DNA of 64,000 bases from Modicisalibacter xianhensis (GTDB taxonomy: Bacteria > Pseudomonadota > Gammaproteobacteria > Pseudomonadales > Halomonadaceae), in contig NZ_FOPY01000014.1 in the NCBI RefSeq assembly GCF_900113605.1, positions 62,001 to 126,000 of the forward strand, read 5' to 3'. Below, piece by piece: positions 4,626 to 52,506 of the stretch. Numbering within the stretch: the first letter of the stretch is position 1; the number at the start of each line of letters is the position of its first letter. The position numbers were made by a program, and so were the translations under genes. Below the pieces are notes generated by a model. It was given only the letters and a program-made list of their open reading frames with translations. It had not been told where the DNA came from and made no database searches.

Positions 4626-4737
4626 TTTAGTCGGTCTGCTGCACTATCATTTAGCTTGTGAGTAAATTTATCAATTTAATAAATATCAGTTTTAAAAAGG
4701 AATTATTTTCGGTCTCTTCCTGATAACTACGCTACGC

Positions 4738-4749
4738 TTCTAAATGACA
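4738..4749 (+). repeat. 12-bp repeat near the island's left end
   Basis: TTCTAAATGACA. An identical 12-mer in the same orientation lies at 52456-52467, about 40 bases inside the right end. Here it overlaps the ATG of the first recombinase gene. It could be a recombinase binding site or a trace of an earlier recombination. Confidence 0.5.
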
Positions 4750-6717
4750 ACAATCATAAAGAAGCAATGGTGCTATATGACAGTCGGGCGCTCTGACATA
4801 GGTACCAATTTTACCCTCACATGCATCCTCCCGGGAGGGCGAAAGACCCGAACCTACCAGTTCTCGGGGCTGCGCCACCTTCCTGTCTCTGAAGCTGATC
4901 GGCTGCGTTCAGGTATGGAGAGGCAACTGGCGGGGAGGTCGCAGACCACCCAGCAGCATGTTATTTATCCGATAAATAACTATCTGGAGTGGTGCACCAC
5001 CCATGGTCGGAACCCATCCTTCTACCAATCGAGCGCAACCAAAGTCTTTGATAATCTTCATAGCTGGCTGATTTCGTGGCTCAGCTCGGAAGAGCGGGAA
5101 TATCTCTCCTCTCATCGCTATTGGGAAGCCGGTCGCCTACACCTGCGGCAATTACAACAGATCAAAGTAATCCCGGTTTTTCCACTGCCTCCGTTAGATA
5201 AGAAAGTGCCGGGACTTCGAAAAATTCATCGCTCTACTCCGACCGTTTTGGACAAGCTCGCCATTACGAGTAGCAGTGCACGCAAACTTGCACTCCCGAG
5301 CGTGAAAGATGGAGAGTTCTTCGACGACGTTCACAGAGCCAGCAGCGAGCTTTTGCGAGCTATTCGGGAGGCGGCTCAGCAGGAGGCCAGCGAATCCATC
5401 GAACTCTTCAAGAGAGGTCAGGAAATGGCTAGAGCCTGTGACATCGAGCGCTTGGAGTACTTCCTGGGCCGGGGCGTTACGTGTGACCCTGATCTGCGGC
5501 ATGGCAAATACCAGGCTCGCATCAGTTTCTTCTCGACGTACCACCCAAATGGTTTGCAGAATCTCGTGGGCTACCTTCATCACCGCCACAACGGAATCGC
5601 CGTCCTGGAGGCACTGCCCTTTTCATGGGGAAGTGTGACACAGAGTTACGGTCGAGAATTTGTTCGTCGCCATCTTGGGCTGACTCGAACAACCTCCGTA
5701 GCGTTCTTCATTCTGCTGGTGATTGAGCTAGGAGTGAACGTGGAGTCACTGGATTCGGCTCGCCTGCAAAATTTAAATGGCGAATTGCGTCTAACTAGCT
5801 CATTCGACGACCCCGCCCTGACCCGTGTTGCTGTTGTGAAGCCAAGGGCGGCGAAGGTCGTTCATAAGCTTGCAGGCCCAAGCGAGGCGATCAGTGTCTC
5901 GGAGATCATGTCCGCACTGTATGCGATGACGGAGCACTGGCGGCAAGATGGCGAAATGGCCCTGTGGCTGGCACCAAGAAGGGGCGATGTGCCGGCTCCG
6001 ATAGGAAAGCATCAGAGCCTTTGGAAAGCGTTCTTGCGTCGCTGGCCTAGTATCAGCGCGCTTATCTCGAAGCCTATAACCCGAGCGGATGTCCGTGTCC
6101 TGGGGGGCGTTGTGGTTTGGTTCGAAGCCGGAGGCGATATGCAGGTCGCCGCCGCGTATCTTAATAACAGACCCGACGTCGCCCTCCGCAACTACATTCC
6201 CAAAGAGATCCAGGACGCCTTCTATGAGCATCAGATTCGCAAATTCCAAAACCTCTTAGTTATCGCTGCAACGCAGCAAGATGCCGATATTTTGGTGAAA
6301 GCGCTGCGTTTTGAGTCCCTTGATGGGCTGAGTACCGAGCTGGAGGCGATTCGCCAAGACAAGGCCTTGTCCGGGTCCCCCATGTTCAAAAGAAGAGATC
6401 GGGAGATCGTGGCCGAATCCACTCCGCAACAGCAATCGGTATTTATGCTCAGCCCGAGGAATGTCGCGGTGCTTGAGCGGCTGTGCGATGCGCTCAAGGA
6501 GTTGCAGGCGAGGCACCCCCGATTCAGTCTAGATAGAGTCTATAAACGCTTTCTGGCTCGCGATTGGCTCGACCTGCGCAATTGTCTACATGGCGTCATG
6601 CGCAGTTGTATGGACCGCGAACTTGCGAGCATCTATCGAGAAGGCCTCGCGCTGGCGCGCAATACAGACTGCGAAATCGAGTTCCCATGTCTCAACGAGC
6701 TCCTGGAGGCTACATGA
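4744..6717 (+). CDS. large tyrosine-recombinase-like protein, catalytically degenerate (island gene 1)
   Basis: A 657-residue protein whose C-terminal half follows the tyrosine-recombinase layout but lacks the full catalytic set. The HxxR box reads A448-D-V-R451, so the His is replaced by Ala. The second histidine position (L-N-N-R) has no His either. The presumed nucleophile survives as Y484 in N-Y-I-P. No clear first Arg box is seen near residue 325. This suggests a structural or DNA-binding partner of the two intact recombinases downstream. I kept the ATG at 4744 although no ribosome binding site is evident. Its stop overlaps the next ATG (ATGA), so it is translationally coupled. The promoter probably lies in the AT-rich 4660-4740 stretch. 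Confidence 0.75.
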   Translation: MTTIIKKQWCYMTVGRSDIGTNFTLTCILPGGRKTRTYQFSGLRHLPVSEADRLRSGMERQLAGRSQTTQQHVIYPINNYLEWCTTHGRNPSFYQSSATKVFDNLHSWLISWLSSEEREYLSSHRYWEAGRLHLRQLQQIKVIPVFPLPPLDKKVPGLRKIHRSTPTVLDKLAITSSSARKLALPSVKDGEFFDDVHRASSELLRAIREAAQQEASESIELFKRGQEMARACDIERLEYFLGRGVTCDPDLRHGKYQARISFFSTYHPNGLQNLVGYLHHRHNGIAVLEALPFSWGSVTQSYGREFVRRHLGLTRTTSVAFFILLVIELGVNVESLDSARLQNLNGELRLTSSFDDPALTRVAVVKPRAAKVVHKLAGPSEAISVSEIMSALYAMTEHWRQDGEMALWLAPRRGDVPAPIGKHQSLWKAFLRRWPSISALISKPITRADVRVLGGVVVWFEAGGDMQVAAAYLNNRPDVALRNYIPKEIQDAFYEHQIRKFQNLLVIAATQQDADILVKALRFESLDGLSTELEAIRQDKALSGSPMFKRRDREIVAESTPQQQSVFMLSPRNVAVLERLCDALKELQARHPRFSLDRVYKRFLARDWLDLRNCLHGVMRSCMDRELASIYREGLALARNTDCEIEFPCLNELLEAT

Positions 6718-8669
6718 AAAAGTCTCTCGACCGCGCCCAACTCATTAGCTTTCTTGATGCTCCTGACTTCTCGGAGACTCCTATAGCCGATTGGCTGCTG
6801 TCCGACTGGCACGCCCCGGTGTGGTACATCAAAAGGGGGTTCGGCAAAGAAGAGCGAGTCCCCGGCACCGATCGGTGGCGTAGAGCCAATCGTATCAACT
6901 GGGACGTTAGGTTGCTGAAGGGAAGGACTTTGCTAGACCCGGAGATGGCGGATCTGCTGGAGACGATCCGGCGTCTGGTGTGGCTCTCCCGCTCCGGCCC
7001 TTCGATGTTCACATCGAATGCAAGGGTGCAGCTAAAACTTGCCCATGGCGCTATAGCCCTCATACGTTGGATGATCTTGCGAGGCTTGAGCGAGCCTTTA
7101 ACCATGCTCCGATTCGGGGCCCTGACAGTGAAGCACTTCGAATGGTTTCTTGAGGATGTCCAGCGGGGTTTGGAGGGCCTTCTCGGTGTCTCTGAGAACA
7201 TTCAGGCGTATCTTGCGGACCTAGAAGATAACGAGGACTACAGCTCAATACTGAATGCAGATGGCTTGGTTTCCTATCAGAAGTTGGCCGATGCGACCGA
7301 TCTCCCGATGGTACATTTAGCCAAGAGTCCAGCAGTGAGGGCCATTCTGGAGGAGAGCGGGTTATCAATGCCGCGACGCAATGACCGAAGTGCCTATACA
7401 ACTGAGCTGGTCGATCTTCGAATCGCGAATGGCTGGGGTGATGACGTAGAGCCTACCGTTGGCAAGCACACGATCTATAGTCTTCTGCTACCCTGGCGAG
7501 AACTTTTCACCCAACGTCCGTATCTGCCAGACGGCATTGGCTTTGACGCCTTCGGTATCGAATCAAGCCCAAGCTTATACGCAGAACAACTCGGTCGCGG
7601 CACCAACAGAACCCCTACCATTCCATACCCAATCGCACTGCACTACCTCAATCACGCGATCAAATGGGTGGTTGAGTATGGCCACGAGCTGGTCGGCTAT
7701 TATTTCGACCTAGTGGATGCGACTGGCGGCCAAAGACTAAGCAAATACAGTGGCACAGCTGCGTTTGGCAAGGTACGCCAGCCTGTAGCCCTTGATTCAC
7801 TGAATATAGTTCGTGCCCACAGATATCACACCGGCGTCAAACACCGTACCCGGCGCGAATCCCCCTCTATTTTCGATGCGATAGATTGTCTCATCGGCGC
7901 TTGCTTCCTAGTGCTTGGCGCGTTCTCAGCGCGGCGAGTCGAGGAGCTTGTTGCGCTCCGTGGAGACGGTTTGGTCGGCGAGCCGGGCTGCTATCGGCTG
8001 CGCTTTTACCTGGAAAAGGGAAGTGACTATGGACCTATGCAGGAAGTGTTGCGGCCGATACCCGATGTCGGCGCACAGGCATTCGGGCTTATTGCGTCGC
8101 TCTCGGGGACTGCCAGCACGAGCGGCTTCATCTTTCGCTTCGGGGACGCGCTTCGAGATATAGAGGGGAGGCATCTGATTATCAATCGCATGGCGCAGTT
8201 CGCCGACATGATCGAAGTACCAGCCCAGACCGTCAATGACGTTCTTGCTCGCTGGTACGTGCAGCCACACGAACTGCGTCGCTTCTTCGCGATGGCCTTC
8301 TTTTGGCATCGCCGCGACGCCTCCCTCGACGCCCTGTCATGGTTCATGGGTCACCTGAACAAAGAGCAAACCCTCCGCTACATCCAAGAGTCCATGGGTG
8401 GGGCAGAACTCTTCGAGGAGGAGGCGCGCTTTACGATGGAAGCCCTGCGTAGGCACATCGCCAATGTTGAAAACCGGGAAAAGCTTGAGGCGGATGTGGA
8501 GCGCCATTTCAATGTCAACCGCCTCGAAGTCATTCCTGACGAGGATCTCCAAGACTATCTTGAATACTTGCACGAATCAGGAGCGCTCAACATCGAGGTC
8601 GTTGCCAGTCCGGATGTGAAGAGCGCAGGCGAAGCGCTCATTATCCGATATCAGAGGGAGGTTGCATAG
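6714..8669 (+). CDS. tyrosine recombinase, large form (island gene 2)
   Basis: A 651-residue site-specific integrase. The catalytic residues look complete: Arg407/408 in S-A-R-R-V-E-E-L, a Lys in L-E-K-G-S, H519-E-L-R522, H547 in M-G-H-L and the nucleophile Y556 in L-R-Y-I. The ~400-residue N-terminal part would hold the core-binding and arm-binding domains. It starts at an ATG overlapping the upstream stop, with GGAGG 4 bases before it; a longer upstream extension would overlap gene 1 deeply and is rejected. The size recalls TnpB of Tn554-type elements. It probably acts with genes 1, 3 and 4 to excise and insert the island. Confidence 0.85.
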   Translation: MKKSLDRAQLISFLDAPDFSETPIADWLLSDWHAPVWYIKRGFGKEERVPGTDRWRRANRINWDVRLLKGRTLLDPEMADLLETIRRLVWLSRSGPSMFTSNARVQLKLAHGAIALIRWMILRGLSEPLTMLRFGALTVKHFEWFLEDVQRGLEGLLGVSENIQAYLADLEDNEDYSSILNADGLVSYQKLADATDLPMVHLAKSPAVRAILEESGLSMPRRNDRSAYTTELVDLRIANGWGDDVEPTVGKHTIYSLLLPWRELFTQRPYLPDGIGFDAFGIESSPSLYAEQLGRGTNRTPTIPYPIALHYLNHAIKWVVEYGHELVGYYFDLVDATGGQRLSKYSGTAAFGKVRQPVALDSLNIVRAHRYHTGVKHRTRRESPSIFDAIDCLIGACFLVLGAFSARRVEELVALRGDGLVGEPGCYRLRFYLEKGSDYGPMQEVLRPIPDVGAQAFGLIASLSGTASTSGFIFRFGDALRDIEGRHLIINRMAQFADMIEVPAQTVNDVLARWYVQPHELRRFFAMAFFWHRRDASLDALSWFMGHLNKEQTLRYIQESMGGAELFEEEARFTMEALRRHIANVENREKLEADVERHFNVNRLEVIPDEDLQDYLEYLHESGALNIEVVASPDVKSAGEALIIRYQREVA

Positions 8670-8671
8670 CC

Positions 8672-9304
8672 TTGCCAAGATTACAGTCTGGTCAAATTGC
8701 GTCCGGGATCGCCGAGAAGCAGGCGAGAATTCATAAGAGCTTGATATGGAAACAGAGGCATCTGCAGGAAATGCTCACTGAAGGCCGAATCCCTGATGGT
8801 TTTGAAGCCTACGCGTCTGTGGCATGCATTTGCGCGTGGGAGTTTAAGAGTAAGGAGAAGGGCCTGGAGATTGTCTGCTGCTCGGTCAACGCTGCAAAGA
8901 ATTGTGACCTGAATCTGTATAAGGACTTAAAAGGACTTTCGAAGCAACTCCGCGCCCTTCATAAGACCCAAGAGCAAAAAGCGCTCCGAGAACATTCTCA
9001 GGACACCTTAATCAATAAGAAGCGGTCGGATACCAAGACCGGGCTCAAAGCACGCAACAGCGACCTTAACCACCAGGTGAGCGTCCTCACAGATGCTCTC
9101 CTTCAGTTGCGCGCTGCTTACCTGGACGCAGTAAGCACGCTGGAAGCCGAAGCTCAAATGAATGCCCATCGACAAGAGGCGATGCGGCGCCACCATGCCA
9201 AGTACCGTCTTGCGCTCGTTGCTGCAAAGCAGCCTTTACCTGGCAGCCAAGTGGCTGAGGATGAGAATGATGAGAAAAATTCTCCGCTCGACGCAGGCCG
9301 CTAA
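8672..9304 (+). CDS. coiled-coil accessory protein of the recombinase operon (island gene 3)
   Basis: A 210-residue basic, helical protein, rich in Lys, Arg, Gln and Leu, with long heptad-like stretches (about residues 75-115 and 125-180). It has no catalytic motif. The position between two recombinases matches TnpC-type accessory proteins of Tn554-like elements or the small member of recombinase trios. Homology is not proven. The TTG start is supported by GGGAGG 10 bases upstream and the absence of an earlier ATG after the preceding stop. Its 3' end overlaps the next gene by about 44 bases. Confidence 0.65.
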   Translation: MPRLQSGQIASGIAEKQARIHKSLIWKQRHLQEMLTEGRIPDGFEAYASVACICAWEFKSKEKGLEIVCCSVNAAKNCDLNLYKDLKGLSKQLRALHKTQEQKALREHSQDTLINKKRSDTKTGLKARNSDLNHQVSVLTDALLQLRAAYLDAVSTLEAEAQMNAHRQEAMRRHHAKYRLALVAAKQPLPGSQVAEDENDEKNSPLDAGR

Positions 9305-10682
9305 TATCCGCGATCCGGCATTCAAAAGAGCGTACAAGTGCGATGACGCTGGTATGCCATTGATTCTCGACAATGCCGGGTATCCTTTTTGGCCGTTCAT
9401 AGACTATCTGCTACGGTACTTCGGCACGGGTACGAAGGCCGTGGGCTCACTCCAGACATATGCCGCCAATCTATCGCTCTTCGTCCAATACCTAGACAGT
9501 CTCAGGCTCCCGCTCGTCGCCATTGATGGCCAGACGATGGTCGACTTTCGCAACCACCTTCTCCGGGATAAAACAGAGCGGAGTAACAACCAGATCAACA
9601 CCATTCTGCGTCGTTGTTTCCATGCTCTTAGTTGGCTACAGCGTAGGCACTACTTCGGCGACAGTTTGGTTATTGGTACCGAGGATCCTGCGCAGATTGT
9701 CATTGGTATGGAAACGTATCAGATCCGCACTAAGCGTGGAGCAATCGCAAAGAGCACTTTCGCTCATGCTTCACTTCTACCGGTGAGTGCCCGGGTCCCG
9801 CGCTTCCCGGTATCTTCGGAGACGATTGAAGCGCTTTGGAACGCGATTCCCAGATTAGGAGTGCCAGGTGAGAGCGGCAAGTTTCGCCGGGATAGGATGA
9901 AGCTACTTCTCTCGTGCGCGGAGCAGACAGGAGCACGACGTATCGAGTTGTCGCGTTTGACAGTGAAGGATATTGAAGAGGCTAAGCGCCGTTTGGAGGA
10001 ACAGAGGCGCAGCCCCGAGAGTCAGCAGAGCGTCAGAGTTGCCATGACAGTCGCGAAGTCCGGCATCGTTAACGATGAGCGAGTTGTCGCTTTTGCACCG
10101 GAACTGATCATGCGAGCGATCCGCTGGATCAAGGGGCCGAGAAAGCGGGCGATCTTACGTGGCAAGACTAACGGTATCATAGATGCCGATCCCGGACTCC
10201 TTTTCGTCGCAAGCGATGGCCGGTCATGGGCGACGCGCTCGTTCAGCGATGAAGTGCTACAACTGAAGAAGCTGGCCGGGTTGCATGAGCCTGCGCACCT
10301 TCATCTGCTGCGCCATAACTGGATCGACATCCTGGCTTGCGCCTATGCCCTGGACACCCGGGGATCTGCGGCGGCCCAGGCCGGTATAGGCGTGCGGCTG
10401 ATGAGCCAGACAGGCCACAAATCAATGCAGGGCGTAGCGCCATACCTGCATATGGCCCATGAAAAGGCAGGCTACTTCAGCAGTGCCGAAAGGATGGCCT
10501 ATTTCGAGCGGCAAATTGCTGCCTTCTCTCACGAGCTTCAAGGCTTACGCAACGCTCTTGAGTCGGCTACCTCGCTTGAGGAGGCCAAGTTGCTCGGCAG
10601 GAATATTGATACATTACTGAGCGCTGCGAAAGAAACCCGCCCCATCGCGAGAATTAAAGACCAGAGAACGCCTGAGTTTTGA
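9261..10682 (+). CDS. tyrosine recombinase (island gene 4)
   Basis: A 473-residue integrase with an intact catalytic set: Arg226/227 in T-G-A-R-R-I-E, H348-L-L-R351, H386 in T-G-H-K-S and nucleophile Y395 in P-Y-L-H. A SAM-like core-binding domain is seen at about 35-130. The start is uncertain: ATGs at 9261, 9267 and 9270 lie within the end of gene 3; longer forms would run far into that gene. A C-terminal helix of about 60 residues follows the Tyr. As the last gene of the overlapping four-gene operon, it is expected to be coexpressed with genes 1-3. Confidence 0.85.
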   Translation: MRMMRKILRSTQAANIRDPAFKRAYKCDDAGMPLILDNAGYPFWPFIDYLLRYFGTGTKAVGSLQTYAANLSLFVQYLDSLRLPLVAIDGQTMVDFRNHLLRDKTERSNNQINTILRRCFHALSWLQRRHYFGDSLVIGTEDPAQIVIGMETYQIRTKRGAIAKSTFAHASLLPVSARVPRFPVSSETIEALWNAIPRLGVPGESGKFRRDRMKLLLSCAEQTGARRIELSRLTVKDIEEAKRRLEEQRRSPESQQSVRVAMTVAKSGIVNDERVVAFAPELIMRAIRWIKGPRKRAILRGKTNGIIDADPGLLFVASDGRSWATRSFSDEVLQLKKLAGLHEPAHLHLLRHNWIDILACAYALDTRGSAAAQAGIGVRLMSQTGHKSMQGVAPYLHMAHEKAGYFSSAERMAYFERQIAAFSHELQGLRNALESATSLEEAKLLGRNIDTLLSAAKETRPIARIKDQRTPEF

Positions 10683-10852: not shown

Positions 10853-11593
10853 ATGGGGCAGCTTGAGCTGACCGTCGGGCGCTACCGCAGCCTGCGCCTG
10901 GGCGCCATCGCCGGCGGCCTCACCGCGCTGCTGGCTCAGGCCGAGGCTAACGAGGTCTCCTACCTGGCCTTTGCCGACATGCTGGTCGAGCACGAGCGCC
11001 AGACCCGCGAGGCGAAGCGCATCGACCTCTACCGGCGCCAAGCCGGCTTCCCCAGCGACAAGCGGCTGGAGGGGTTCGACTACCGGCACCAGACCACCAT
11101 CACCAAGCGCCAGATCAACGCCCTGCTGGACTTCTCCTTCCTCGATAACCGCGAGAATCTGGTGTTCATCGGCCCGCCAGGGGTGGGCAAGACTCATCTA
11201 AGCATCGGTATCGGCCAGAAGGCCATCGAGGCCGGCTACCGGGTGCTGTTCCGCAACGCCCTGGACCTGGTCGAGGAGCTGGAGCTAGCGGAGATGAAGG
11301 GCGAGCTGAAGAAGACGCTGCACAAGCTCGCCAAGGTCGACGCCCTGGTGATCGACGAGCTGGGCTACCTGCCGATGAGCCGGCAGGCGCGCTACGCGCT
11401 GTTCCAGCTGATCAACCGGTTCTACGAGCACCGGTCGCTGATCATCACCACCAACAAGGACTTCACCAGCTGGGGCGAGTTCTTCCACGACGACAACGTG
11501 GCGGTGCCGATCGTCGACCGGATCATCCATCACTCGCACCTCTACCTGCTCGGCGGGGAGAGCTACCGGCTGAAGCAGAAGACGCTCAGCTGA
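10853..11593 (+). CDS. istB: IstB-type transposition helper ATPase
   Basis: A 246-residue AAA+ protein with Walker A G-P-P-G-V-G-K-T at residues 107-114 and a Walker B region V-I-D-E-L-G-Y. IS21 IstB loads on DNA and activates the IstA transposase. Length is normal for the family (about 240-260). AGGAGGTGACCC precedes the ATG. Its partner IstA survives only as a tail, so it is probably idle unless another IS21 copy supplies IstA. Confidence 0.92.
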   Translation: MGQLELTVGRYRSLRLGAIAGGLTALLAQAEANEVSYLAFADMLVEHERQTREAKRIDLYRRQAGFPSDKRLEGFDYRHQTTITKRQINALLDFSFLDNRENLVFIGPPGVGKTHLSIGIGQKAIEAGYRVLFRNALDLVEELELAEMKGELKKTLHKLAKVDALVIDELGYLPMSRQARYALFQLINRFYEHRSLIITTNKDFTSWGEFFHDDNVAVPIVDRIIHHSHLYLLGGESYRLKQKTLS

Positions 11594-11676: not shown

Positions 11677-11968
11677 GCAGACGTTCGACAAACCCGTTGC
11701 TCTTCGGCCGGTGTACCTTGTTCGTGCGGTGCTCTTCTCAAGTTGGAGGAACCGCTCATGCATGCGGGCAGATTGACGGGGTTACTCTCGAGCCTTTCGG
11801 ATCAGTCGGTGACCCAATCAGATGTCGAGTCGAAAGGGGTACGTGGCAACACTGGGCAGGGGCCGCGTCATGAATGAATCTCTGGCCATGCCGGGGCCCG
11901 GACGTGATCGCTCGAACACGATGCCCATGATCGAATGGCACGTACTGAAACGGAGACAAGGTGCGCTT

Positions 11969-12910
11969 ATGAATCACGGCAACGGCGGTCACGGCCATGC
12001 GGGGCACATGCCTTCCAGTGGATCTGGAATGGCGATTTCGGCCTGGCTGACGGGGATCTACTTCTTCATCGAGATGGGCATCGGTCTTTGGACCGGCTCG
12101 GTCGCGGTGATCTCGGACGCCTTCCACACCTTCTCGGCGGTGGGTGGCGTGCTGGTGGCCATCACCGCTGCCCGGCTCGCCCGCCGCCCGGCTGATGAGG
12201 ACCGCAGCTTCGGCTGGTATCGCGCCGAGATCGTGGGTGCCCTGGTCAACGGCGGCTTTTTGCTGGGCATGGCGCTGATCGTGGTCGTGATGGCCGGCAT
12301 GCGGATGACCGACCCCATTGATCTGTCCACGGCACCCATGCTGTGGGCGGCGGCTGGCGGCCTGCTTACCGAGATCGTCTCGCTGGGCCTGATCTGGAAA
12401 CAAAGCCGCAGCGACCTGAACGTCAAAGGCGCATTGTGGCATATCATCCAGACTTTCGTCGGCAGCCTGCTCATCATCGTCACCGCGCTGGTGATTCGCT
12501 TCACCGGGTTCTTGCTGATCGACCCGCTGCTTGGCATGGCCTTCGGCTTCGTACTGTTGTGGGCGAGCTGGGGTATCCTGCGCGATGCCACCCATTTGCT
12601 GATGGAGGGTACGCCCTCCGAGATTCGACTGGCCGAGGTGACGGAAGCACTGATAGCGCTTGACGGCGTGGAAAATGCTCATCACGTGCACGCCTGGGCA
12701 CTGACCAGCGGCCGTTACGTATTCTCCGGTCACCTGCGAATCTCCGACGGCACCGATCCACAGGCCGTGCTCAAAGCCGGCTATAGCATGCTCAAGGATC
12801 ATTATGGCTTTTTCTTCGCCACACTGCAGGTGGAGACCACCTGTCTCGACGAGTCAGGTGCCGAAGTGATCGATGTCACGCGACCGGCGAGCAAGGGAGG
12901 GCAGGCATGA
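11969..12910 (+). CDS. cation diffusion facilitator (CDF) metal exporter
   Basis: A 313-residue inner-membrane metal/H+ antiporter of the CzcD/DmeF type. It has a His/Gly-rich N-terminus (residues 2-12), six membrane segments and metal-site motifs in TM2 (S-D-A-F-H) and in TM5, and a cytoplasmic C-terminal domain. TM2 has His where Zn transporters often have Asp pairs (H-T-F-S), so the ion could be Zn2+, Co2+ or Ni2+. I chose the ATG at 11969 because the N-terminal His loop is typical; ~50 upstream codons look non-coding. It is coupled to the next gene by ATGA. Confidence 0.88.
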   Translation: MNHGNGGHGHAGHMPSSGSGMAISAWLTGIYFFIEMGIGLWTGSVAVISDAFHTFSAVGGVLVAITAARLARRPADEDRSFGWYRAEIVGALVNGGFLLGMALIVVVMAGMRMTDPIDLSTAPMLWAAAGGLLTEIVSLGLIWKQSRSDLNVKGALWHIIQTFVGSLLIIVTALVIRFTGFLLIDPLLGMAFGFVLLWASWGILRDATHLLMEGTPSEIRLAEVTEALIALDGVENAHHVHAWALTSGRYVFSGHLRISDGTDPQAVLKAGYSMLKDHYGFFFATLQVETTCLDESGAEVIDVTRPASKGGQA

Positions 12911-13821
12911 ACACCCTCCTTCTGCTTGCGCTGATCACGGTCTCCGAGGCGACCATCGGTGTGTTCGTTAAGCTTACCGACGGGCGGATTCCGATCCAAA
13001 CTTTGACCTTCTATGCCATGGCCTTCGCGGCGGCCTTCCTATTCATAGCGCGGGCCCTGGCAACTCGGCAATGGCCTCGGTTTCCCAAAGGCAACGTCAA
13101 GGATACCGCCATCATCGGCGTACTGATCGCCGCCCAGGGCGGCGTCTTCAACTTCGCCATGTCACTTGTGCCGATCGCCAACGCGGTGATCTTCTGGAGC
13201 ATCGCGCCATTCTTCGTGTTCATCTTTTCGGCGCTGTTCTTGGGCGAGAAGGCGCGCAGGAGCTATGTCTTGATCTTCGCCATCGCCCTGATCGGTATCG
13301 CGCTCGCCAATCCGCTCGGCGGCGGCCATATGCTGGGCAACCTCGTGGCGCTGGCCACCGGGGCGATCTACGCCGCGATGGTTACCTACATGCGCTATGA
13401 GGGCAAGACCGAGACCGGGAATGACATCGCCTGGTCGCTGCTAGTCGCGGCGCTGGTGCTCTCGCCGTTCCTGTTGATCGCGGGTCCCGGCCAGGTGGCG
13501 ATGACGATCGCCTATCCGGCACTCGGCGTGGAACTGCCGGTGATGCTCTGGGCCGCAAGCCTGGGCATCGTGTCCACGGGCTTCGCCTATTTCGGCATCT
13601 CCATCGTCTTGAAGTCGCTCAATGCCAACGTCTATGCCCTGGTCGATATCATCGTCTCGCCGGTGGTGGCCTCGAGCCTGGGTTTTCTGATCTTCGCAGA
13701 GGTGCCGGGCCGAGGCATGATCTATGGCGGCGCCTTGCTGCTCGGCGCCGGCTTCTGGCTGACCCGCGAGATGTCGCGGGGTCGGGAAAGCCAGGCCGTG
13801 CATCCCTGTCAGTGCGTATAG
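12907..13821 (+). CDS. EamA/DMT-family permease
   Basis: A 304-residue drug/metabolite transporter superfamily protein. It has ten hydrophobic segments in two EamA repeats (about 1-140 and 150-290). The start overlaps the CDF stop by 4 bases, so both are translated together. The substrate cannot be predicted; members export amino acids, metabolites or drugs. The last 10 codons lead into a scrambled region, so the extreme C-terminus may be altered. Confidence 0.85.
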   Translation: MNTLLLLALITVSEATIGVFVKLTDGRIPIQTLTFYAMAFAAAFLFIARALATRQWPRFPKGNVKDTAIIGVLIAAQGGVFNFAMSLVPIANAVIFWSIAPFFVFIFSALFLGEKARRSYVLIFAIALIGIALANPLGGGHMLGNLVALATGAIYAAMVTYMRYEGKTETGNDIAWSLLVAALVLSPFLLIAGPGQVAMTIAYPALGVELPVMLWAASLGIVSTGFAYFGISIVLKSLNANVYALVDIIVSPVVASSLGFLIFAEVPGRGMIYGGALLLGAGFWLTREMSRGRESQAVHPCQCV

Positions 13822-14671: not shown

Positions 14672-16519
14672 TCATCTTTTCGACGTGGACTCATTCGACG
14701 CTTCCAGCGGTGCTGCCAGTTCGAGTCCCGCTTGTTGGGCCAATCGTTCTATCTCCCGGTAGTGACGACGATACTCGCTGGAATCCAGCGGGGCGTAGTT
14801 GAGGTTCTTCATCTCGCTGGCCAGGGCGGTGAAGTACTCGCGAATGGCGTCCTTCTCCTCGAAGGCGTATGTCGCGTTCACCAGCGGATGGATCAGTTCC
14901 AGGCTGCGCCGCTGGCGCGCCGGGGAGGTGCTGCCATCCACCGCATCGAAGGCATCCTGCTGGAGATAGACCAGATCGAGGAAGGCGGCCTTGTGGTAGG
15001 TGAGGAAGTCCTCGAGTGTGATGCCCTCGTCCCCGGTGACCTGCATCATCTGGTTGACGTCCTCCCCATCGTGAAGCAGCTGTAATAATTCGTCGATTCG
15101 CCCCGGCCACTCCTTGCCGAGACGCTCGGCGATGGCGGGTTCGAGCTCGGCTCGATAGCGTGACCAGGAGAGCAGGGGATCTACCGCCGGATAGAAGCGC
15201 TTGTAGGCGCGCTCGGATGACAGACCGAGAAACGCCTTGACCGTACTCAGGGTCGCCTGGGTCACCGGCTCCTCGAAGTTGCCGCCGGAGGGGGAGACGG
15301 TGCCGATCAGGGTCAGGCTGCCGCTGTCGCCGGCGTTGTTCCGAATCACGCCGGCGCGTTCGTAGACGCTGCGCACCGCCGAGTCCAGGTAGGCGGGGTA
15401 GGCCTCCTCGCCGGGAATCTCCTCCATGCGTCCGGAGGTCTCGCGCATCGCCTGGGCCCAGCGCGAGGTGGAGTCGGCGATCAGCAGCACGTCGAGCCCC
15501 ATCTGACGATAGTATTCGCCGAGGGTGATGCCGGTGTAGATGGAGGCCTCCCGGGCGGCCACCGGCATCGAGGAGGTGTTGCAGACGATCACGGTGCGGT
15601 CCATCAGCGAGCCGCCGGTGGTCGGGTCGCTGAGTCGCGGGAACTCGGTGATGGTCTCCACCACCTCGCCGGCCCGCTCGCCGCAGGCGACGATGATCAC
15701 GATATCCACGGTGGAGTAGCGGGCGATAAGGTTCTGCAGCACCGTCTTGCCGGCGCCGAAGGGGCCGGGAATGCAGGCGGTGCCGCCGGTGGCGATGGGG
15801 AAGAAGGTATCGATCACCCGAATGGTGGTGTCCAGGGGGCGGTCGGGATAGAGCCGCTCGCTGGCGTGGCTGGCGAGCAGGCGCTGCGGCAGCGGTGTGC
15901 GCACCGGCCAGCGCTGGGCCAGGGTGACCCGGCGCTCGACGCCCGCCTCGTCGACGAGGCGCGCCACCGGTACGTCCACGGCGAAGCTGCCCTCCTGGAT
16001 CCAACTCACCTCCTGCTCCCCCCGGGTGTCGAAGGGCACCATGATGCGGTGGGTGAAACGCCCCTCCTGCACGGTGCCCAGGGTGTCCCCGGCGCGCAGT
16101 TTGGCGCCCATGCGCACCCTGGGGGAAAAGGACCACTTGGTGGTCCTGTCCAGGGCCGCCAGGTGTAGCCCCCGAGGCAGGAAGAAGCCGGACTGCAGGG
16201 CGATCTGCTCCAGGGGGTTCTGCAGGCCGTCGTAGATCTGCCCCAGCAGACCCGGGCCGAGGGTGACCGAGAGCATCTCGCCGGTCTGCTCCACGCCGTC
16301 GCCCACCTTGATGCCGCCGGTATCCTCGAAGACCTGAACGTCCGCCCGCTTGCCCTGGACTCGCAGCACTTCGCCCTTGAGGCGGACGTCCCGTTCCTCC
16401 TCATCCTGGGCGGGACGGATATAGACCACCTCGTTCTTCATCAGCCCCTTCGAATCTTCAAGAGCCTCGATGACCACGATATCGTCCTGGACATTGACCA
16501 CCCGGCAATCCTTATCCAT
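14672..16519 (-). CDS. ntpA: V/A-type ATPase catalytic subunit A
   Basis: The 615-residue catalytic subunit of a bacterial V/A-ATPase. The P-loop G-P-F-G-A-G-K-T is at residues 252-259, with the family-specific A-C-G-E-R block about 25 residues later. An N-terminal beta-barrel (1-75) and the non-homologous insert (about 110-190) are present, and the length is normal (580-620). It binds and turns over ATP at the A3B3 head. ATG at 16519 has AGGAGG 9 bases upstream; a GTG one codon earlier is equally possible. It is last in the operon, whereas in Chlamydia/Borrelia-type operons A precedes B. Confidence 0.95.
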
Positions 16520-17231
16520 CACTCTCGACCTCCTGAAAAAGCACTCCGTAGTCGCCGAGCCCCCGCGCGATATCGGCTCGCAGACGACGCTGTGCCGCCT
16601 CGGCGTTGTAGCGCCGCCAGGCGGCGATCAGTCGCCAGCGCAGCCAGTAGATGACGACCTCGCGAAAGTCGAAGCGGTCATAGCGCCGCGCCCGCTCCAG
16701 CCGCCGCCAGTTCTCCTCGATGAGCCGTCGCTCCAGCTCCCGGGGACGGTCCTGCGCCAGATGCTCCCGGGCCTCGGCGAGCCAGGGAAAGACCGCTCCC
16801 AGGCCGAACAGCGCTGCCTGCCAGTGGGCGCCGATATGCGCCAGGCGCGGGCCGATTCCCCAGGTTTCGCCCAAGGCCGGAGCAGGGTCGCCGGACCGGC
16901 GTCGACGCAGGGCCGCCACCAGGGTGCACTGTTCGAGCTGGGCCTCGACGAGATCTTTCACACCCTGCTCCGCCAGCCGAGGCGCCGCCTGCCGGTAGCG
17001 ATGAATATAGGCCACGGTGGACAACTCCAGGCCCAGATGCCGCCAGTCGAGCAGGCTCTCCAGCGCCTCTAGCGTGTCGCGATGGGCGTCGCTCAGAGTC
17101 TCCAGGCGACGCTCCAGACGAATCGCCGAGATCGGCAGGGGCTCGCGGCCGAAGGGCGTGGCGGGCAGGGCCGGCAGGCTGGCGAGCAGGTCGACGTACT
17201 GGTGGCGTTTGGACATCGTTGTTAATGACAT
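16512..17231 (-). CDS. DUF2764 V-ATPase-associated subunit (subunit C analogue)
   Basis: A 239-residue protein, almost all helical, rich in Arg, Leu and Trp. It sits between subunits E and A, the place held by DUF2764 proteins in spirochaete and chlamydial V-ATPase operons. These are thought to replace subunit C, the link between central stalk and membrane motor. It overlaps the A-subunit start by a few bases and follows E after 2 bases. A second in-frame ATG at 17216 cannot be excluded as start. The DUF2764 assignment rests on context and helical pattern more than on a sharp motif. Confidence 0.7.
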   Translation of the reverse strand: MSLTTMSKRHQYVDLLASLPALPATPFGREPLPISAIRLERRLETLSDAHRDTLEALESLLDWRHLGLELSTVAYIHRYRQAAPRLAEQGVKDLVEAQLEQCTLVAALRRRRSGDPAPALGETWGIGPRLAHIGAHWQAALFGLGAVFPWLAEAREHLAQDRPRELERRLIEENWRRLERARRYDRFDFREVVIYWLRWRLIAAWRRYNAEAAQRRLRADIARGLGDYGVLFQEVESDG

Positions 17232-17233
17232 CG

Positions 17234-17923
17234 CTACTTGACGATGCCTTCGAGCATGGCGCGAAAGCGCGGCTGCAGATGCTGCAATAGCAGCTCCGCC
17301 ACCGCCTCGTCGCTGAAATCGAGCTCCATCTCGTGCTCGTGCAGGCGGATGCGCAGGCCGCTTGCGTGCTCGCCTGTGGTGAAGCGTACCCCCTCACGCA
17401 GCACCTCCCGGGCCTGGGCGGCCACGAACCAGGAAAGCGTGCCCTCCTTGAGCGCTTCCGGGCGGCGACGCAGCTCCTCCAGCCCCACCGCGTCCCGGGG
17501 CAGCATCACTTCGATGTCGTTCTCCGCCTCCAGCGGCGACTCGGCCCGGGTGCGGGCGGCGAGTTCGAGAATCAGCCGCTGCAGCAGGTCCTCCCGGGAC
17601 AGGGCCTCGCCCACCAGCCAGCGTAGATGATCGCGAAAGCGGTGGGTCAGGGTGGCCTGCATCTCCAGCACCGCGTCCCGGGCGGCGACCCGCAGCGCTT
17701 CCCTGGCGGCGTTTTCCAGGCGCCCGGCTTCCTCTCGGGCCTCCCGACGCAGTTCCTCGGCGTCCCGCTCCGCCTGCTCGATCATCCAGGTGGCGCGACG
17801 CTCCGCATCCCCCACGATGCGCCGGGCTTCCTCCCGGCCCTGCTCGACCCCCTCGCCGCGCAGCCGCTCGATCAGCGCCTCGACGCCGGAGGAGGCGCCC
17901 TGCAGGGATTCCGCTTGACTCAT
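17234..17923 (-). CDS. ntpE: V/A-type ATPase peripheral-stalk subunit E
   Basis: A 229-residue stator protein. The long N-terminal charged coiled coil (about residues 15-95, rich in Glu, Arg and Ala) and the C-terminal globular domain (about 100-229) are the subunit E pattern. No subunit G/H gene is found in the operon, so E may pair with itself or with a partner encoded elsewhere, as in other reduced bacterial sets. AGGAG lies 6 bases before the ATG. Confidence 0.88.
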   Translation of the reverse strand: MSQAESLQGASSGVEALIERLRGEGVEQGREEARRIVGDAERRATWMIEQAERDAEELRREAREEAGRLENAAREALRVAARDAVLEMQATLTHRFRDHLRWLVGEALSREDLLQRLILELAARTRAESPLEAENDIEVMLPRDAVGLEELRRRPEALKEGTLSWFVAAQAREVLREGVRFTTGEHASGLRIRLHEHEMELDFSDEAVAELLLQHLQPRFRAMLEGIVK

Positions 17924-17939
17924 GAGGATCTCCTCGAAC

Positions 17940-18389
17940 TCATTGGGCCGGAATATTGCCGCCGATCACCAGGGCGAAGATGAAGGCGAACACCCCGAAG
18001 CCTTCGACGATGGCCGCCGGGGCGATGGACAGGCCGAAGATCTCCGGCTTGCTCTTCGCGCTGTTGATCGCCGAAGCACAGCAGCTGCCCTGGTAGACCG
18101 CACTCAGCAATAGGGCCACCCCGGCGAGGATGCCCACGGAGAACAGCCCCGCGGAGGTCTCGAGGGTGATCGGGCGCTGCAGGGTGAACATCACCACGAT
18201 GCCATAGATGCTCTGGGAGGAGGGCATCGCCGAGAGCCCGATGAAGCGCCCGTGGCCGGACTCGGTCTCGAGCAGGGCACCGATGGCCGCCTGGCCGGCG
18301 ATGGCGCAGCCGATGATGCTGCCGATGGCCCCCAGGGCCATGGGGCCGTAAAGGCCCGCCCAGCCCAGGGCGAGAATCAGTTGCTCCAT
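17940..18389 (-). CDS. ntpK: V/A-type ATPase rotor ring subunit K, Na+-type ligand set
   Basis: A 149-residue double-hairpin proteolipid with four membrane helices. The essential carboxylate is E129 in A-I-V-E-G-F. The residues that bind Na+ in Enterococcus hirae NtpK (Leu61, Thr64, Gln65, Gln110, Glu139) appear here as Met55, Ser58, Gln59, Gln100 and Glu129. The Ser/Gln pair in P-S-S-Q-S-I-Y-G and the Gln in Y-Q-G are kept, which points to Na+ rather than H+ coupling, fitting a halophile and the NhaA gene in the array. The N-terminal hairpin lacks its own carboxylate, so the ring would carry one ion site per subunit. It overlaps the end of subunit I. Confidence 0.92.
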   Translation of the reverse strand: MEQLILALGWAGLYGPMALGAIGSIIGCAIAGQAAIGALLETESGHGRFIGLSAMPSSQSIYGIVVMFTLQRPITLETSAGLFSVGILAGVALLLSAVYQGSCCASAINSAKSKPEIFGLSIAPAAIVEGFGVFAFIFALVIGGNIPAQ

Positions 18390-36976: not shown

Positions 36977-37558
36977 TCAGGATGTCGTGGGCTTCGGGTC
37001 GACGCCGATCTCGACCCGGGACTCGGACAGGAAGCGGTACGGCGGAACCTCCAGGTTGGTCGGCGCCGGCACCGCCTTGTACACGCGGCCGGCGAAGTCG
37101 AACTTGGAACCGTGGCAGGGGCAGAAGTAGCCGCCCGGCCAGTCGTCGCCGACCGAGCCTGGCTCCGGTCGAAACAGGGGCACGCAGCCGAGGTGGGTAC
37201 AGATGGCGATGACCACCAGATACTCCTCCTCGAGCGAGCGCAGTGGCCCGGTGATATAGGTCGGCTGCTGTGATTCCACCTCGGCGAGGGGATCGCGGAG
37301 CCGGTCGGAGTCGGTCAGTGTCGCCAGGCGCTCGAGGATCGCCGGGGTGCGGCGCAAGACCCAGACGGGCTTGCCGCGCCATTCCACGGTCAGCTGCTGC
37401 CCCGGCTCCAGCTTGTCGACGTCGACCTCGATGGGGGCGCCGGCGGCCCTGGCGCGCGCACTGGGCTGCCAGGAGGCAATGAACGGCACCGCCGTGAAGG
37501 CCGCCCCGACGCCGCCGACCACCACCGTCGCGCCGACGAGAAAGCGTCTGCGTTTCAT
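36977..37558 (-). CDS. Rieske iron-sulfur protein (ubiquinol-cytochrome c reductase type)
   Basis: A 193-residue protein. A twin-arginine-like N-terminus (R-R-R-F-L-V-G) and one membrane segment (about 8-28) are followed by a Rieske domain. The 2Fe-2S ligands are C120-T-H122-L-G-C125 and C146-P-C148-H149-G-S. Cytochrome b and c1 genes are absent, so it could be spare or used by a chromosomal bc1 complex. Start at 37558 with GGGAGG upstream; it overlaps the NhaA stop by 4 bases, so antiporter and Rieske protein are coupled. Confidence 0.92.
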   Translation of the reverse strand: MKRRRFLVGATVVVGGVGAAFTAVPFIASWQPSARARAAGAPIEVDVDKLEPGQQLTVEWRGKPVWVLRRTPAILERLATLTDSDRLRDPLAEVESQQPTYITGPLRSLEEEYLVVIAICTHLGCVPLFRPEPGSVGDDWPGGYFCPCHGSKFDFAGRVYKAVPAPTNLEVPPYRFLSESRVEIGVDPKPTTS

Positions 37559-38760
37559 GACAACCTCCCAGGATCGATAGTCGAATCCTCCGCCGGTGGT
37601 GCAGACTGCCGGGGCAGCGTCGCCGCCAGCACCGCAGCGCCGACCAGCGCCGCGACGGCTGAGGCGAGTAACACGCCCTGGCGGGCCGCGGTCAGGGCCG
37701 CCGGGGTATCGAAGGCGAGCCCGGCGATGAACAGGCTCATGGTGAACCCGATACCCGCCAGCACGGCCACCCCGTAGAGGTGGCGCCACCGAACGCCCGC
37801 GGGCAGCCGCGCGAGGCGCAGCCGGATCGCCAGCCAGGCGAAGGTGAACACCCCCAACTGCTTGCCCAGCAAGAGACCGAGAGTCACCCCGAGGAAGACG
37901 TTGCCGAAGCCCTCGCCTCCTGCTCTCACCGCGATCCCCGCGTTGAAGAAGGCGAACACGGGCACGACGCCGAAGGTGACCCAGCGCCTCAGATCATGGT
38001 AGGTGCGATCGAGTGGGGAGCCTTCCCGGTGGCCATCCCGCGTCCTGGCGGGAATGGCCAAAGCGATCACGACCCCGGCCAGGGTCGCGTGAACCCCGGA
38101 CTTGAGTACCGCGACCCACATCACCAGCCCCAGCAGCACGTAGGGCAGGGCGCGCATGACCCGAAAGCGATTGAGGAGTACGAGGCCGGCGAGGGCGGCA
38201 CCGGCGATGAGCAGTGCCTCCCCGGCGAGGCGCTCGGTATAGAACAGCGCGATGATCACGATGGCACCGAGATCGTCGAAGACCGCCAGGGCCATCAGGA
38301 ACACCCGCAATGCCGGGGGCACGCGCTCGCCGAATAGCGACAGCACCGCCAGGGCCAGCACGATGTCGGTGGCGGTGGGCACGGCCCAGCCGTGGGCGGC
38401 GATCCCCGCGGTGCCGTTGACGATCAGGTAGACCAGCGCCGGCAGCAGCATGCCACCGGTCGCCGCGATCGCCGGCAATGCCACCTGCCGGGCCGAGCCC
38501 AGCAGACCACCGAGCATCTCGCGCTTGAGTTCGACGCCCATCAGCAGGAAGAAGAACACCATCAGCCCGTCGTTGATCCACAGGATCAACGGCTTGTCGA
38601 TGCCCAGGGTGCCGACCTGCAGCGACACGGGGGTATGGTGCACCAGTTGGTAGAAGTCACGCAGTGGCGAGTTGGCGAGTATTAGCGCCACGAGCATGGC
38701 GCCGACGGTGACCAGCCCCGCCGCCCGTTCTTCCTTGCCCTGTTGCGCCAACGTCGTCAC
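37555..38760 (-). CDS. nhaA: Na+/H+ antiporter NhaA
   Basis: A 401-residue inner-membrane antiporter with about twelve helices. The TM5 aspartate pair is seen in A-V-F-D-D-L-G-A, and P-T-A-T-D-I lies before it (TM4). The GTG at 38760 has AGGAG 9 bases upstream; the longer frame adds a Lys/Arg-rich stretch without support. NhaA uses the proton gradient to expel Na+, whereas the Na+-type V-ATPase could expel it with ATP. The two together can set Na+ and pH under stress. Confidence 0.94.
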   Translation of the reverse strand: MTTLAQQGKEERAAGLVTVGAMLVALILANSPLRDFYQLVHHTPVSLQVGTLGIDKPLILWINDGLMVFFFLLMGVELKREMLGGLLGSARQVALPAIAATGGMLLPALVYLIVNGTAGIAAHGWAVPTATDIVLALAVLSLFGERVPPALRVFLMALAVFDDLGAIVIIALFYTERLAGEALLIAGAALAGLVLLNRFRVMRALPYVLLGLVMWVAVLKSGVHATLAGVVIALAIPARTRDGHREGSPLDRTYHDLRRWVTFGVVPVFAFFNAGIAVRAGGEGFGNVFLGVTLGLLLGKQLGVFTFAWLAIRLRLARLPAGVRWRHLYGVAVLAGIGFTMSLFIAGLAFDTPAALTAARQGVLLASAVAALVGAAVLAATLPRQSAPPAEDSTIDPGRLS

Positions 38761-38785
38761 GGTGGATAATCTCCTGAAGGTCGAC

Positions 38786-39445
38786 CTAGGCGCGCCAATC
38801 GCTCGTACGCGCTGTCCGCCACTGGGGAATGAATCGTGGCGTGTGTGTCGCATAGGCTTGCCACGCCTCACCGAACCGACGCGCTACCTCGCGCTCTTCG
38901 TGGATCGCCAGTCGTGAGTACATCCACACCAATACCGGGAACATGACCAGGGTCAGCAGGGTGGGCCACTGCAGCAGGAAGCCGGTCATCACCAGCACGA
39001 AGCCGGCGTACTGCGGATGCCGGACATGGGCATAGAGTCCGGTGGTGGCCAGTTCTCCCCGCCGCTGGGCGGCATAGAGCACCCGCCAGCCGGCGGCGAT
39101 GAGCCAGAAACCCGCGACGATGAATACCATGCTCAGGAGGTGGAACGGCCCGAAATGCGGGTTGGCCTGCCAGCCGAAGAGCATCTCCAGTAGGTGGCCC
39201 GAGTCGTGGGCGAACCAGTCCACCTCCGGGTAGCGCGACTGCAGCCAACCGGAGAGGAAGTAGAGGGTCAGCGGGAAGCCGTACATCTCGGTGAACAGCG
39301 CCACCAGGAAGGCGCTGAAGGCCCCGAGCGAGCGCCAGTCCCGGCGCGTCTGTGGCTTGAAGAAGCTGAAGGCGAAGAAGATGAAGATCGCCGAGTTGAG
39401 GATGACCAGGCTCCACAGGCCATAGGACGGTATCTCGCTACTCAT
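38786..39445 (-). CDS. isoprenylcysteine carboxyl methyltransferase-like membrane protein (copy 1)
   Basis: A 219-residue integral membrane protein with five helices. The C-terminal ICMT/PEMT motif reads G-L-Y-A-H-V-R-H-P-Q-Y-A-G, followed by E-E-R-E-V. These bacterial ICMT-like proteins often accompany copper ATPases; the methyl acceptor is unknown. AAGGAGG precedes the ATG at 39445, and the gene overlaps the DUF2933 stop. A related copy is at 42642-43313. Confidence 0.85.
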   Translation of the reverse strand: MSSEIPSYGLWSLVILNSAIFIFFAFSFFKPQTRRDWRSLGAFSAFLVALFTEMYGFPLTLYFLSGWLQSRYPEVDWFAHDSGHLLEMLFGWQANPHFGPFHLLSMVFIVAGFWLIAAGWRVLYAAQRRGELATTGLYAHVRHPQYAGFVLVMTGFLLQWPTLLTLVMFPVLVWMYSRLAIHEEREVARRFGEAWQAYATHTPRFIPQWRTARTSDWRA

Positions 39446-52148: not shown

Positions 52149-52455
52149 GCCTGGTTAGGTACTTTATATCTTCAAGACTGAGCTACGGCATCAGCCGATA
52201 GTTCATGCAACAAGAGCCAGCTGACAGTGTCGGCTGGTTTTTCTTGGTTTCATACTCTCACCAATAGCGAACCCTGAGCTACTCAGAAGTTAGGCGGTAC
52301 AGCTGAATCTGGATGTTGCAAAACATTACCAATTGCGATTGCAGTATTCCCTCCACCTTCTGCGTCCCAGCAGCTTACGAAGGCGAGAGTTGATGGAACG
52401 TGGTGCGGGACGTAGGTAGTAGGTGCACCTGTCTAACTGATACCAAGTGGCTTCG

Positions 52456-52467
52456 TTCTAAATGACA
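52456..52467 (+). repeat. 12-bp repeat near the island's right end
   Basis: TTCTAAATGACA, identical to 4738-4749 and in the same orientation. Its TCATTTAG part, read on the minus strand, also mirrors 4647-4654 at the left end. Confidence 0.5.
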
Positions 52468-52506
52468 GACAGGAGGCCTGGTTGGGGCGCTCCGGCAAAA
52501 AACCTC

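What the first reader, a model, noticed from the sequence alone, without database searches (positions are those of the whole stretch)
4626..52506. A 47.9-kb island has split a plasmid nuclease gene, with both halves still readable
The gene ending at 3630 lacks its first strand and starts N-V-R-Q-L-G. A signal peptide ending G-S-W, overlapping kfrA by ATGA, lies at 52507-52596 in the same orientation. Joined, they give a normal exported DNase I-like nuclease with HhH domain. This sets both borders of the island to within a few bases and separates backbone from cargo.
Basis: partly seen in the sequence, partly recalled or inferred. Interest (0 to 1): 0.93.

Follow-up and report, generated by a model that had tools for sequence, protein, structure and literature searches.

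The report
Site-specific island splits plasmid nuclease gene
A 47.9-kb mobile element has inserted at one exact codon of an exported-nuclease gene on a Halomonas-type plasmid, and related copies with the same ends sit at the same codon in other Halomonas-family genomes, once facing the other way, so the element appears to seek out this gene.

Summary
In pHAL1 the intact kfrA-nuclease operon aligns to window 52507-53695 and 3635-4625, and the two blocks abut at locus bases 9000|9001. The right piece matches nuclease residues 1-30, the left piece 31-359. The pieces were not joined.

The island is a mobile element. G008 carries it (52.95 kb) with the same ends, in the opposite orientation, at the same codon of a nuclease about 50% identical. 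A KO116 plasmid carries a third, truncated insertion there. The ends form imperfect inverted repeats (7/9) around a 6-bp crossover; in the window the target's own 6 bp lie at the left end and foreign 6 bp at the right, as in strand-biased circularizing elements (SEs).

Four left-end genes encode two complete tyrosine recombinases, a third large protein and a small one. Profiles pair them with SE IntB, IntA, Tfp (weak) and Srap (not significant), but ordered tfp-intB-srap-intA, not intA-tfp-intB-srap. Six related loci share this order.

Verdict: real, a new variant of a known kind. Mobility is inferred, not shown.

The parts
3630..4625 (-). 3' part of the split exported nuclease gene (residues 31 onward; endonuclease/exonuclease/phosphatase domain plus helix-hairpin-helix)
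4620..4625 (.). target's own 6-bp crossover sequence, CACATT on + (AATGTG in nuclease sense), at the left border
   Evidence: same position in intact homologs
4626..4642 (+). left element end; first 9 bp TTTAGTCGG pair 7/9 with the right end
   Evidence: same in the G008 copy; arm comparison
4744..6717 (+). O1: 657-aa protein, Tfp-like by profile (weak); R451 and Y484 invariant in 9 of 9 rows but no full recombinase residue set
6714..8669 (+). O2: 651-aa large tyrosine recombinase (R408, K435, H519-x-x-R522, H547, Y556; each in 8 or 9 of 9 rows), IntB-like
8672..9304 (+). O3: small protein (210 aa from the first possible start), Srap-like by position and weak profile evidence
9162..10682 (+). 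O4: ordinary tyrosine recombinase (R259, H381-x-x-R384, H419, Y428; each in 6 of 6 rows), IntA-like; true start probably downstream of 9162
10853..11593 (+). IS21-type istB gene inside the element, taken as not part of its core
11822..13821 (+). cargo: cation-efflux transporter and EamA transporter
14672..22209 (-). cargo: V-type ATPase operon
22354..38871 (-). cargo: MFS transporter, CFA-type synthase, enoyl reductase, thiolase, PhaC, phosphotransacetylase, acetate kinase, DUF3141, NhaA
39701..51268 (.). cargo: P-type ATPase with heavy-metal-binding domain, YHS proteins, LemA/TPM, DsbD-like, VTT protein
52484..52500 (+). right element end; last 9 bp CCGGCAAAA
   Evidence: same 17 bp, and the 40 bp before it, in window, G008, G013, KO116/G306 and G246
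52501..52506 (.). 6-bp footprint AACCTC, foreign to this target
52507..52596 (-). 5' part of the split nuclease gene: 30-residue leader (signal peptide) ending G-S-W
52593..53732 (-). kfrA (KfrA_N domain), upstream gene of the nuclease operon, ATGA overlap

Best explanation
[quoted passage not shown] Shown: base-exact split; the same element ends in different flanks; the same target codon in three replicons; both orientations; a 6-bp crossover with, in the window, target bases at one border and foreign bases at the other; two recombinases with complete catalytic residues. Inferred: O2 and O4, helped by O1 and O3, recombine the two ends into a circle and insert it between the W and N codons. 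Inferred: the window copy came from a donor sitting in a nuclease gene with AACCTC at this point. Inferred: the element spreads between cells by riding on plasmids, at the cost of one dispensable gene.
For: Empty site and split. Second copy, opposite orientation, alignment ends 4626 and 52506. O1 and O4 are 100% identical between these copies while the interrupted nucleases are about 50% identical. Third insertion in KO116 plasmid NZ_CP011053.1, same right junction in G246. The intact close relative of the G008 gene in G012 has AACCTC at the crossover. Recombinase residues; O4 hits Phage_integrase (E 5.2e-6, just under the cut-off) and a PHROGs integrase (E 2.4e-13). Profile links to SE proteins. 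SE rule that the target's 6 bp stay at the left border and the donor's 6 bp go to the right: PMC10214605 (abstract, sections 7 and 12, part 1 of section 3, passages) and PMC9345347 (passages only).
Against: No movement has been observed. Among the copies found only the window and G008 keep the recombinase module: in KO116 the part equivalent to window 4626-17765 is absent beside the insertion and O1 was found in no KO116 plasmid record; O1 was not found in G013. In G008 (both borders AACCTC) and KO116 (right border AATATT) the right-border 6 bp equal the real or likely native target bases, so the SE footprint rule is discriminated by the window copy alone. Profile support is strong for O4 (98.4%) and O2 (94.6%), weak for O1 (45%, and only 7.1% before the L099 protein, assigned by position, was added) and not significant for O3 (3.9%; 1.0% before). 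In one search one cross pairing (O2-IntA 10.5%) exceeded the O1-Tfp value. Structure models of O1 and O2 were useless (mean pLDDT 35.2 and 36.1). The 7/9 inverted repeat alone has chance probability 0.0013. Riding on plasmids is unproven: the replicon type of the G008 contig was not established, and some nuclease homologs lie in genomes made of a single contig (e.g. G042), that is, on chromosomes.
Confidence: 0.87

Rival explanations
1. The two pieces belong to different genes and the match of borders is coincidence.
For: None found; both Pfam hits of the left piece are slightly below cut-off.
Against: pHAL1 and pTHAF12_a encode both pieces as one protein without gap or overlap; 18 of 22 homologous loci examined have the leader running straight into the nuclease.
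Confidence: 0.01
2. The island reached the plasmid by homologous recombination between plasmids or by IS activity, and is not itself a mobile element.
For: IS remnants (istB at 10853-11593, IS5-type fragment at 51864) lie inside; the copies differ as mosaics, about 80-100% identity by segment.
Against: The ends agree to the base in opposite orientations with unrelated flanks, and the IS remnants found do not reach either end. Homologous exchange would carry flanking nuclease sequence along.
Confidence: 0.05
3. It is a plain member of the SE (or GInt) group and the gene order is of no account.
For: Each O protein has its best SE partner one-to-one; 6-bp crossover and inverted repeats at the ends; L101 has O-like proteins in the SE-like order A - 614-aa ORF - B - s; 47.9 kb lies within the SE size range of 6.4-58.5 kb (passage).
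Against: BLAST finds one marginal similarity to SE-6945 proteins (O2-IntB, E 0.002). The order tfp-intB-srap-intA recurs in six other loci, so it is not a local rearrangement. GInt proteins could not be compared.
Confidence: 0.3
4. It is an ICE or IME moved by a single integrase, and the other three genes are cargo.
For: One ordinary integrase (O4) is present.
Against: 44 island ORFs given to Pfam show no relaxase or type IV secretion domain at E 0.001 (not every ORF was scanned); the four genes occur together in the same order elsewhere; the 6-bp pattern fits the multi-recombinase group.
Confidence: 0.05

Closest known systems
Strand-biased circularizing integrative elements (SE-6945, SE-6283; PMC10214605, PMC9345347)
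   Same: Four recombination genes at the left end; [quoted passage not shown] imperfect terminal inverted repeats; 6-bp crossover with target bases at the left border and donor bases at the right (window copy); few selected targets; no transfer genes found; size within the published range.
   Different: Gene order is tfp-intB-srap-intA instead of intA-tfp-intB-srap; proteins barely detectable by BLAST against SE-6945; target is a nuclease gene of plasmids; both orientations at one site (not mentioned in the passages read).
GInts (PMC5385486; called Tn6571 family in PMC10121019, passages)
   Same: Three integrase-like proteins plus a small protein at one end, large cargo, site-specific insertion into a gene, excision compatible with 6-nt staggered cuts.
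   Different: The papers give the order ginA-ginB-ginC-ginD with the degenerate integrase third and the small gene last; here the degenerate-like gene is first and the small gene third. No GInt protein could be fetched for a homology test.
Gamma-mobile-trio islands (GmtY, GmtX and a VPA1269-family protein), one present in pTHAF12_a
   Same: Recombinase module with a large partner and a small protein, here next to the same kind of plasmid backbone genes (L030).
   Different: Three genes, not four; no convincing profile similarity to O1-O4.
Tn554-type transposons
   Same: 6-bp footprint and target specificity (as described in PMC10214605).
   Different: Three genes (tnpA, tnpB, tnpC), no Tfp counterpart according to that paper; sequences not compared here.
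RIT elements (recombinase in trio)
   Same: Several tyrosine recombinases in a row.
   Different: Three recombinases of 315-410 aa, all with catalytic tyrosine (table note in PMC10214605); here the set and sizes differ.

Membership tests
SE | intA, tfp, intB, srap homologs all present | tested here: inconclusive
   hhalign: O4-IntA 98.4%, O2-IntB 94.6%, O1-Tfp 45.1%, O3-Srap 3.9%; the other 12 pairings at most 7.3%. Before one relative per family was added: 98.2, 84.0, 7.1 and 1.0%, other pairings at most 10.5%. O3 not significant.
SE | gene order intA-tfp-intB-srap from the left end | tested here: not met
   window order O1-O2-O3-O4 = tfp-intB-srap-intA; SE order seen in L052, L086, L088 and L089
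SE | imperfect inverted repeats with a 6-bp spacer in the joined ends | tested here: met
   CCGGCAAAA and TTTAGTCGG pair at 7 of 9 positions (P 0.0013); longer stretches 8/13 to 11/20, P 0.003-0.006. SE repeats are given as 13-19 bp.
SE | split target sequence retained at both borders against an element-free relative | tested here: met
   pHAL1 breakpoints 4625 and 52507 abut at 9001/9000
SE | left-border 6 bp from target, right-border 6 bp from donor | tested here: inconclusive
   window copy fits (CACATT / AACCTC); G008 and KO116 copies cannot discriminate
SE | circular form made with strand bias and without an empty site | not testable with these tools
   needs PCR on a living host
GInt | ginA-ginB-ginC-ginD order, three integrase-like genes first and the small gene last | tested here: not met
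   order compared with the papers' text only; in the window the small gene is third
GInt | homology to Gin proteins | not tested
   no Gin sequence could be identified in the collections
Gamma-mobile-trio | GmtY, GmtZ (VPA1269 family), GmtX homologs | tested here: not met
   hhalign of O1-O4 profiles against the three single proteins of L030: best 20.8% (O4-GmtZ, 76 columns), all others below 1%; no Gmt model among NCBIfam hits
ICE/IME | relaxase or conjugation genes in the element | tested here: not met
   no such domain among 44 island ORFs scanned with Pfam; the remaining ORFs were not scanned
RIT | three tyrosine recombinases of about 315-410 aa, all with catalytic tyrosine | tested here: not met
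   657, 651, 210 and up to 506 aa; O1 lacks the full residue set

The most novel reading that the evidence does not exclude
A third arrangement of one ancestral four-protein recombination machine (tfp-intB-srap-intA, besides the SE and GInt orders) defines a separate group of mobile elements that attack the most conserved codons of protein genes. Here it uses the active-site codons of a plasmid nuclease in either orientation to ride on plasmids; in a relative (G017) the element appears to split recA and to carry a complete replacement recA at its left end.
Probability: 0.5. Interest if true: 0.72.

Novelty: new variant of a known kind. Interest (0 to 1): 0.6.

Why it matters
It separates backbone from cargo to the base on a Halomonas-type plasmid and turns one anecdotal island into a defined element with ends, target and recombinases. 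Three insertions at one codon in both orientations, with a readable 6-bp trace of the previous site in the window copy, give a natural record of transposition. They also make testable how SE, GInt and Tn554 machines relate, because similar components recur in a different order. The cargo (V-type ATPase, polyhydroxybutyrate genes, NhaA, metal P-ATPase) shows that such elements can move large stress-related blocks by using conserved genes as docking sites.

Tried and rejected
Rejected: two unrelated genes; IS- or homology-driven transfer; gamma-mobile-trio identity (first guess; no support in NCBIfam or hhalign); ICE/IME. The idea that the MFS gene at 22354-23694 is a tetracycline pump was not supported: best NCBIfam score 89.9 bits against a cut-off of 475.

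Led nowhere: single-sequence structure predictions of O1 and O2, so no fold search was made; PDB sequence searches with the O2 profile (best E 0.32, second an integrase chain at 0.86) and the O1 profile (best E 0.79); PHROGs for O1 (nothing) and O3 (E 0.077 only) (O2 had an integrase hit at 4.6e-4 and O4 at 2.4e-13); a conserved-peptide scan with the O1 alignment was impossible; Rfam on 4400-14000 found nothing; no GInt protein could be identified for comparison. L042 (weak O1 match) and L100 were fetched but their modules were not resolved and they are in no count; L098 has an integrase first and a small protein last with two unassigned ORFs between and is in no count either. Rows missing from the profiles because the gene was absent or outside the fetched stretch: O3 of L048; O4 of L040, L047 and L048. 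The broken Tfp gene of L089 and the truncated set of L087 after tfp were left out, and of the O1 gene in L045 only one of two ORFs was used. Literature: ten searches of the open-licence library, judged from the listings except for the four papers opened (PMC10214605, PMC5385486, PMC9345347, PMC10121019); no listing named this gene order or a kfrA-linked nuclease as target. Listed papers with SE terms that I did not open include PMC10782965, PMC11064530 and PMC12486829.

Full report
Bases 3630-4625 (minus) encode the body of an exported-type nuclease that starts without its leader (N-V-R-Q-L-G), and 52507-52596 (minus) encode a 30-residue leader ending G-S-W whose ATG overlaps the kfrA stop. 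The intact gene exists in Halomonas plasmids. In pHAL1 it is 363 aa and lies directly behind a gene annotated as DNA-binding protein that aligns to kfrA, and pTHAF12_a has the same arrangement. Aligned separately to the pHAL1 protein, the right piece covers residues 1-30 and the left piece 31-359; the right piece scores 103 against a maximum of 41 in 500 shuffles. At DNA level the pHAL1 alignment breaks at window 4625 and 52507, and the two blocks abut at bases 9000/9001 of the pHAL1 locus.

One search examined 22 nuclease loci: all 9, the 11 relatives stored (which listed more places than it stored), and the two plasmids. In 18 of 22 the leader runs in frame into the nuclease, 2 (G008 and G013) carry the right end of the window's element at this codon, and 2 (L009, L010) are decayed at their start. 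The residues are G/A-S/T-W/F, then N-x-x-x-L/A-G. From memory, this Asn is the first active-site residue of the DNase I/APE1-type nuclease family; no call tested that. The 6 bases after the W codon vary among the 18: AACCTC 3, AATGTG 3, AATATC 3, AACATC 2, AATCTG 2, and five others once each.

The island moves as a unit. In G008, contig C12, the same element lies at 65890-118840 with alignment ends at window 4626 and 52506. There it interrupts another nuclease, about 50% identical to the window's, at the same codon but in the opposite orientation. O1 and O4 are 100% identical between the two copies, while cargo segments are about 80-100% identical. A third insertion is in Halomonas sp. KO116 plasmid NZ_CP011053.1: the right end abuts a nuclease at the same codon, the element matches window 17766-52502 with an IS481-type gene inserted at 52030, and the left part is missing. 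G246 shows the same right junction as KO116 (G306 appears to be KO116 itself), and G013 the same as G008; I count these as the same insertions, so three independent insertions are claimed.

The borders read as a tyrosine-recombinase crossover. The left end starts TTTAGTCGG and the right end stops CCGGCAAAA; as inverted repeats they agree at 7 of 9 positions (P 0.0013). Outside the left end the window has CACATT, which is the target's own sequence (AATGTG in nuclease sense). Outside the right end it has AACCTC, which is not. AACCTC is the sequence at this point in an intact close relative of the G008 gene (G012). In SEs the target's 6 bp stay at the left border and the donor's 6 bp are placed at the right (PMC10214605, abstract, sections 7 and 12, part 1 of section 3 and passages; PMC9345347, passages). 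By that rule the window copy came from a donor in an AACCTC-type nuclease gene, such as the one interrupted in G008. This polarity is an inference from one informative copy: G008 has AACCTC at both borders, and KO116 has AATATT at the right border, which is probably its native sequence (an intact homolog with the same N-I-R-H-L-G codons, L020, has AATATT). Neither can test the rule, and that both match their own targets is not what the rule alone would predict.

The left end carries four genes. O2 (651 aa) and O4 (up to 506 aa) have complete tyrosine-recombinase residues. O1 (657 aa) keeps a conserved Arg and Tyr but not the full set. O3 is a small protein. Relatives of all four in the same order occur in L041, L044, L045, L046, L049 and L099; L040, L047 and L048 show the first two or three. 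The family links are direct or through intermediates, and the first gene of L099 is assigned by position only (no HMM hit). The genes are rare in the genomes searched: O1 in 4 of 275 family genomes (two near-identical, two distant), O4 in 5 of 97 relatives (two near-identical, one distant, two weak), and O2 in 1 of 369 genomes sampled from the class, the window's own.

Compared with SE-6945, plain BLAST finds only a marginal O2-IntB match (E 0.002). With profiles (7-10 rows per O family; 4 or 5 rows per SE family from L052 and L086-L089) the best partners pair one-to-one: O4-IntA 98.4%, O2-IntB 94.6%, O1-Tfp 45.1%, O3-Srap 3.9%, the other twelve pairings at or below 7.3%. Before one relative was added to each O family the values were 98.2, 84.0, 7.1 and 1.0%, with one cross pairing (O2-IntA) at 10.5%. 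In L099 the small protein matched both the O3 profile (4.5e-7) and the Srap profile (0.0019). The first two links are solid; O1 is suggestive and O3 rests mainly on position. The order here is tfp-intB-srap-intA; SEs have intA-tfp-intB-srap (seen in L052, L086, L088 and L089), and GInts are described as ginA-ginB-ginC-ginD with the degenerate integrase third and the small gene last (PMC5385486, abstract, part 1 of section 3 and passages). L101 on the G012 contig has O-like proteins in an SE-like order, so the orders may interconvert. I therefore place the element beside SEs and GInts as a variant and do not file it as a member of either. GInt proteins could not be compared.

Cargo: cation-efflux and EamA transporters, a V-type ATPase operon, a polyhydroxybutyrate/acetate block (thiolase, PhaC, phosphotransacetylase, acetate kinase, DUF3141), NhaA, a metal-type P-ATPase and membrane proteins. 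No relaxase or secretion domain was found among the 44 island ORFs scanned, so spread between cells presumably depends on the carrier replicon. The nuclease is found in 146 of 72,556 plasmid records at E 1e-5, 10 of them over at least 80% of the query; some homologs are fragmentary and some lie in single-contig genomes such as G042, so it is not plasmid-bound and its loss is probably tolerated; this is inference. The replicon type of the G008 contig was not established.

Limits: no movement was observed; two complete copies only; weak links for O1 and O3; structure models failed. Statements about print cover only the open-licence library, mostly at the level of search listings.

Noticed in passing
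L099, L110, L111 (genome G017, contig C22, 41625-75182): A relative of this element (L099) appears to split the native recA (fragments at 75003-75182 and 41625-42346, minus strand, about 32.7 kb apart) and to carry a complete recA copy (356 aa, 73865-74935) at its left end, resembling the bcp copy described for SE-6283 (passage). The exact 6-bp borders were not settled.
   Followed up: partly
L101 4190-9587 (G012 contig C11): A second recombinase cluster in the order integrase - 614-aa ORF - large integrase - small protein lies about 5 kb from the intact nuclease gene of G012; the same integrase match occurs in G008 and G013.
   Followed up: partly
L030 1297-6686: pTHAF12_a carries a gamma-mobile-trio module (gmtX, VPA1269-family gene, gmtY) next to a radC-type gene in the same backbone stretch.
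   Followed up: no
window 51864-52150: Near the right element end a 5' fragment of an IS5-type transposase is fused to sequence matching the end of a YceI-family gene; matches to one or other part of this end occur in 143 of 275 family genomes, many of the listed ones to about 52031-52150.
   Followed up: no
window 53785-53965, 56116-56205, 61390: A motif around GCAACATCCCCAC recurs upstream of kfrA (three copies at 77-90 bp spacing) and again at 56116 and 56192, with partial copies at 61390 and, inside the island, 45173; possibly binding sites of a plasmid regulator.
   Followed up: no
L029 6087-7454: pHAL1 has a group II intron reverse transcriptase gene between the ardC-like and kfrA-like genes, a further mobile element beside this operon.
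   Followed up: no
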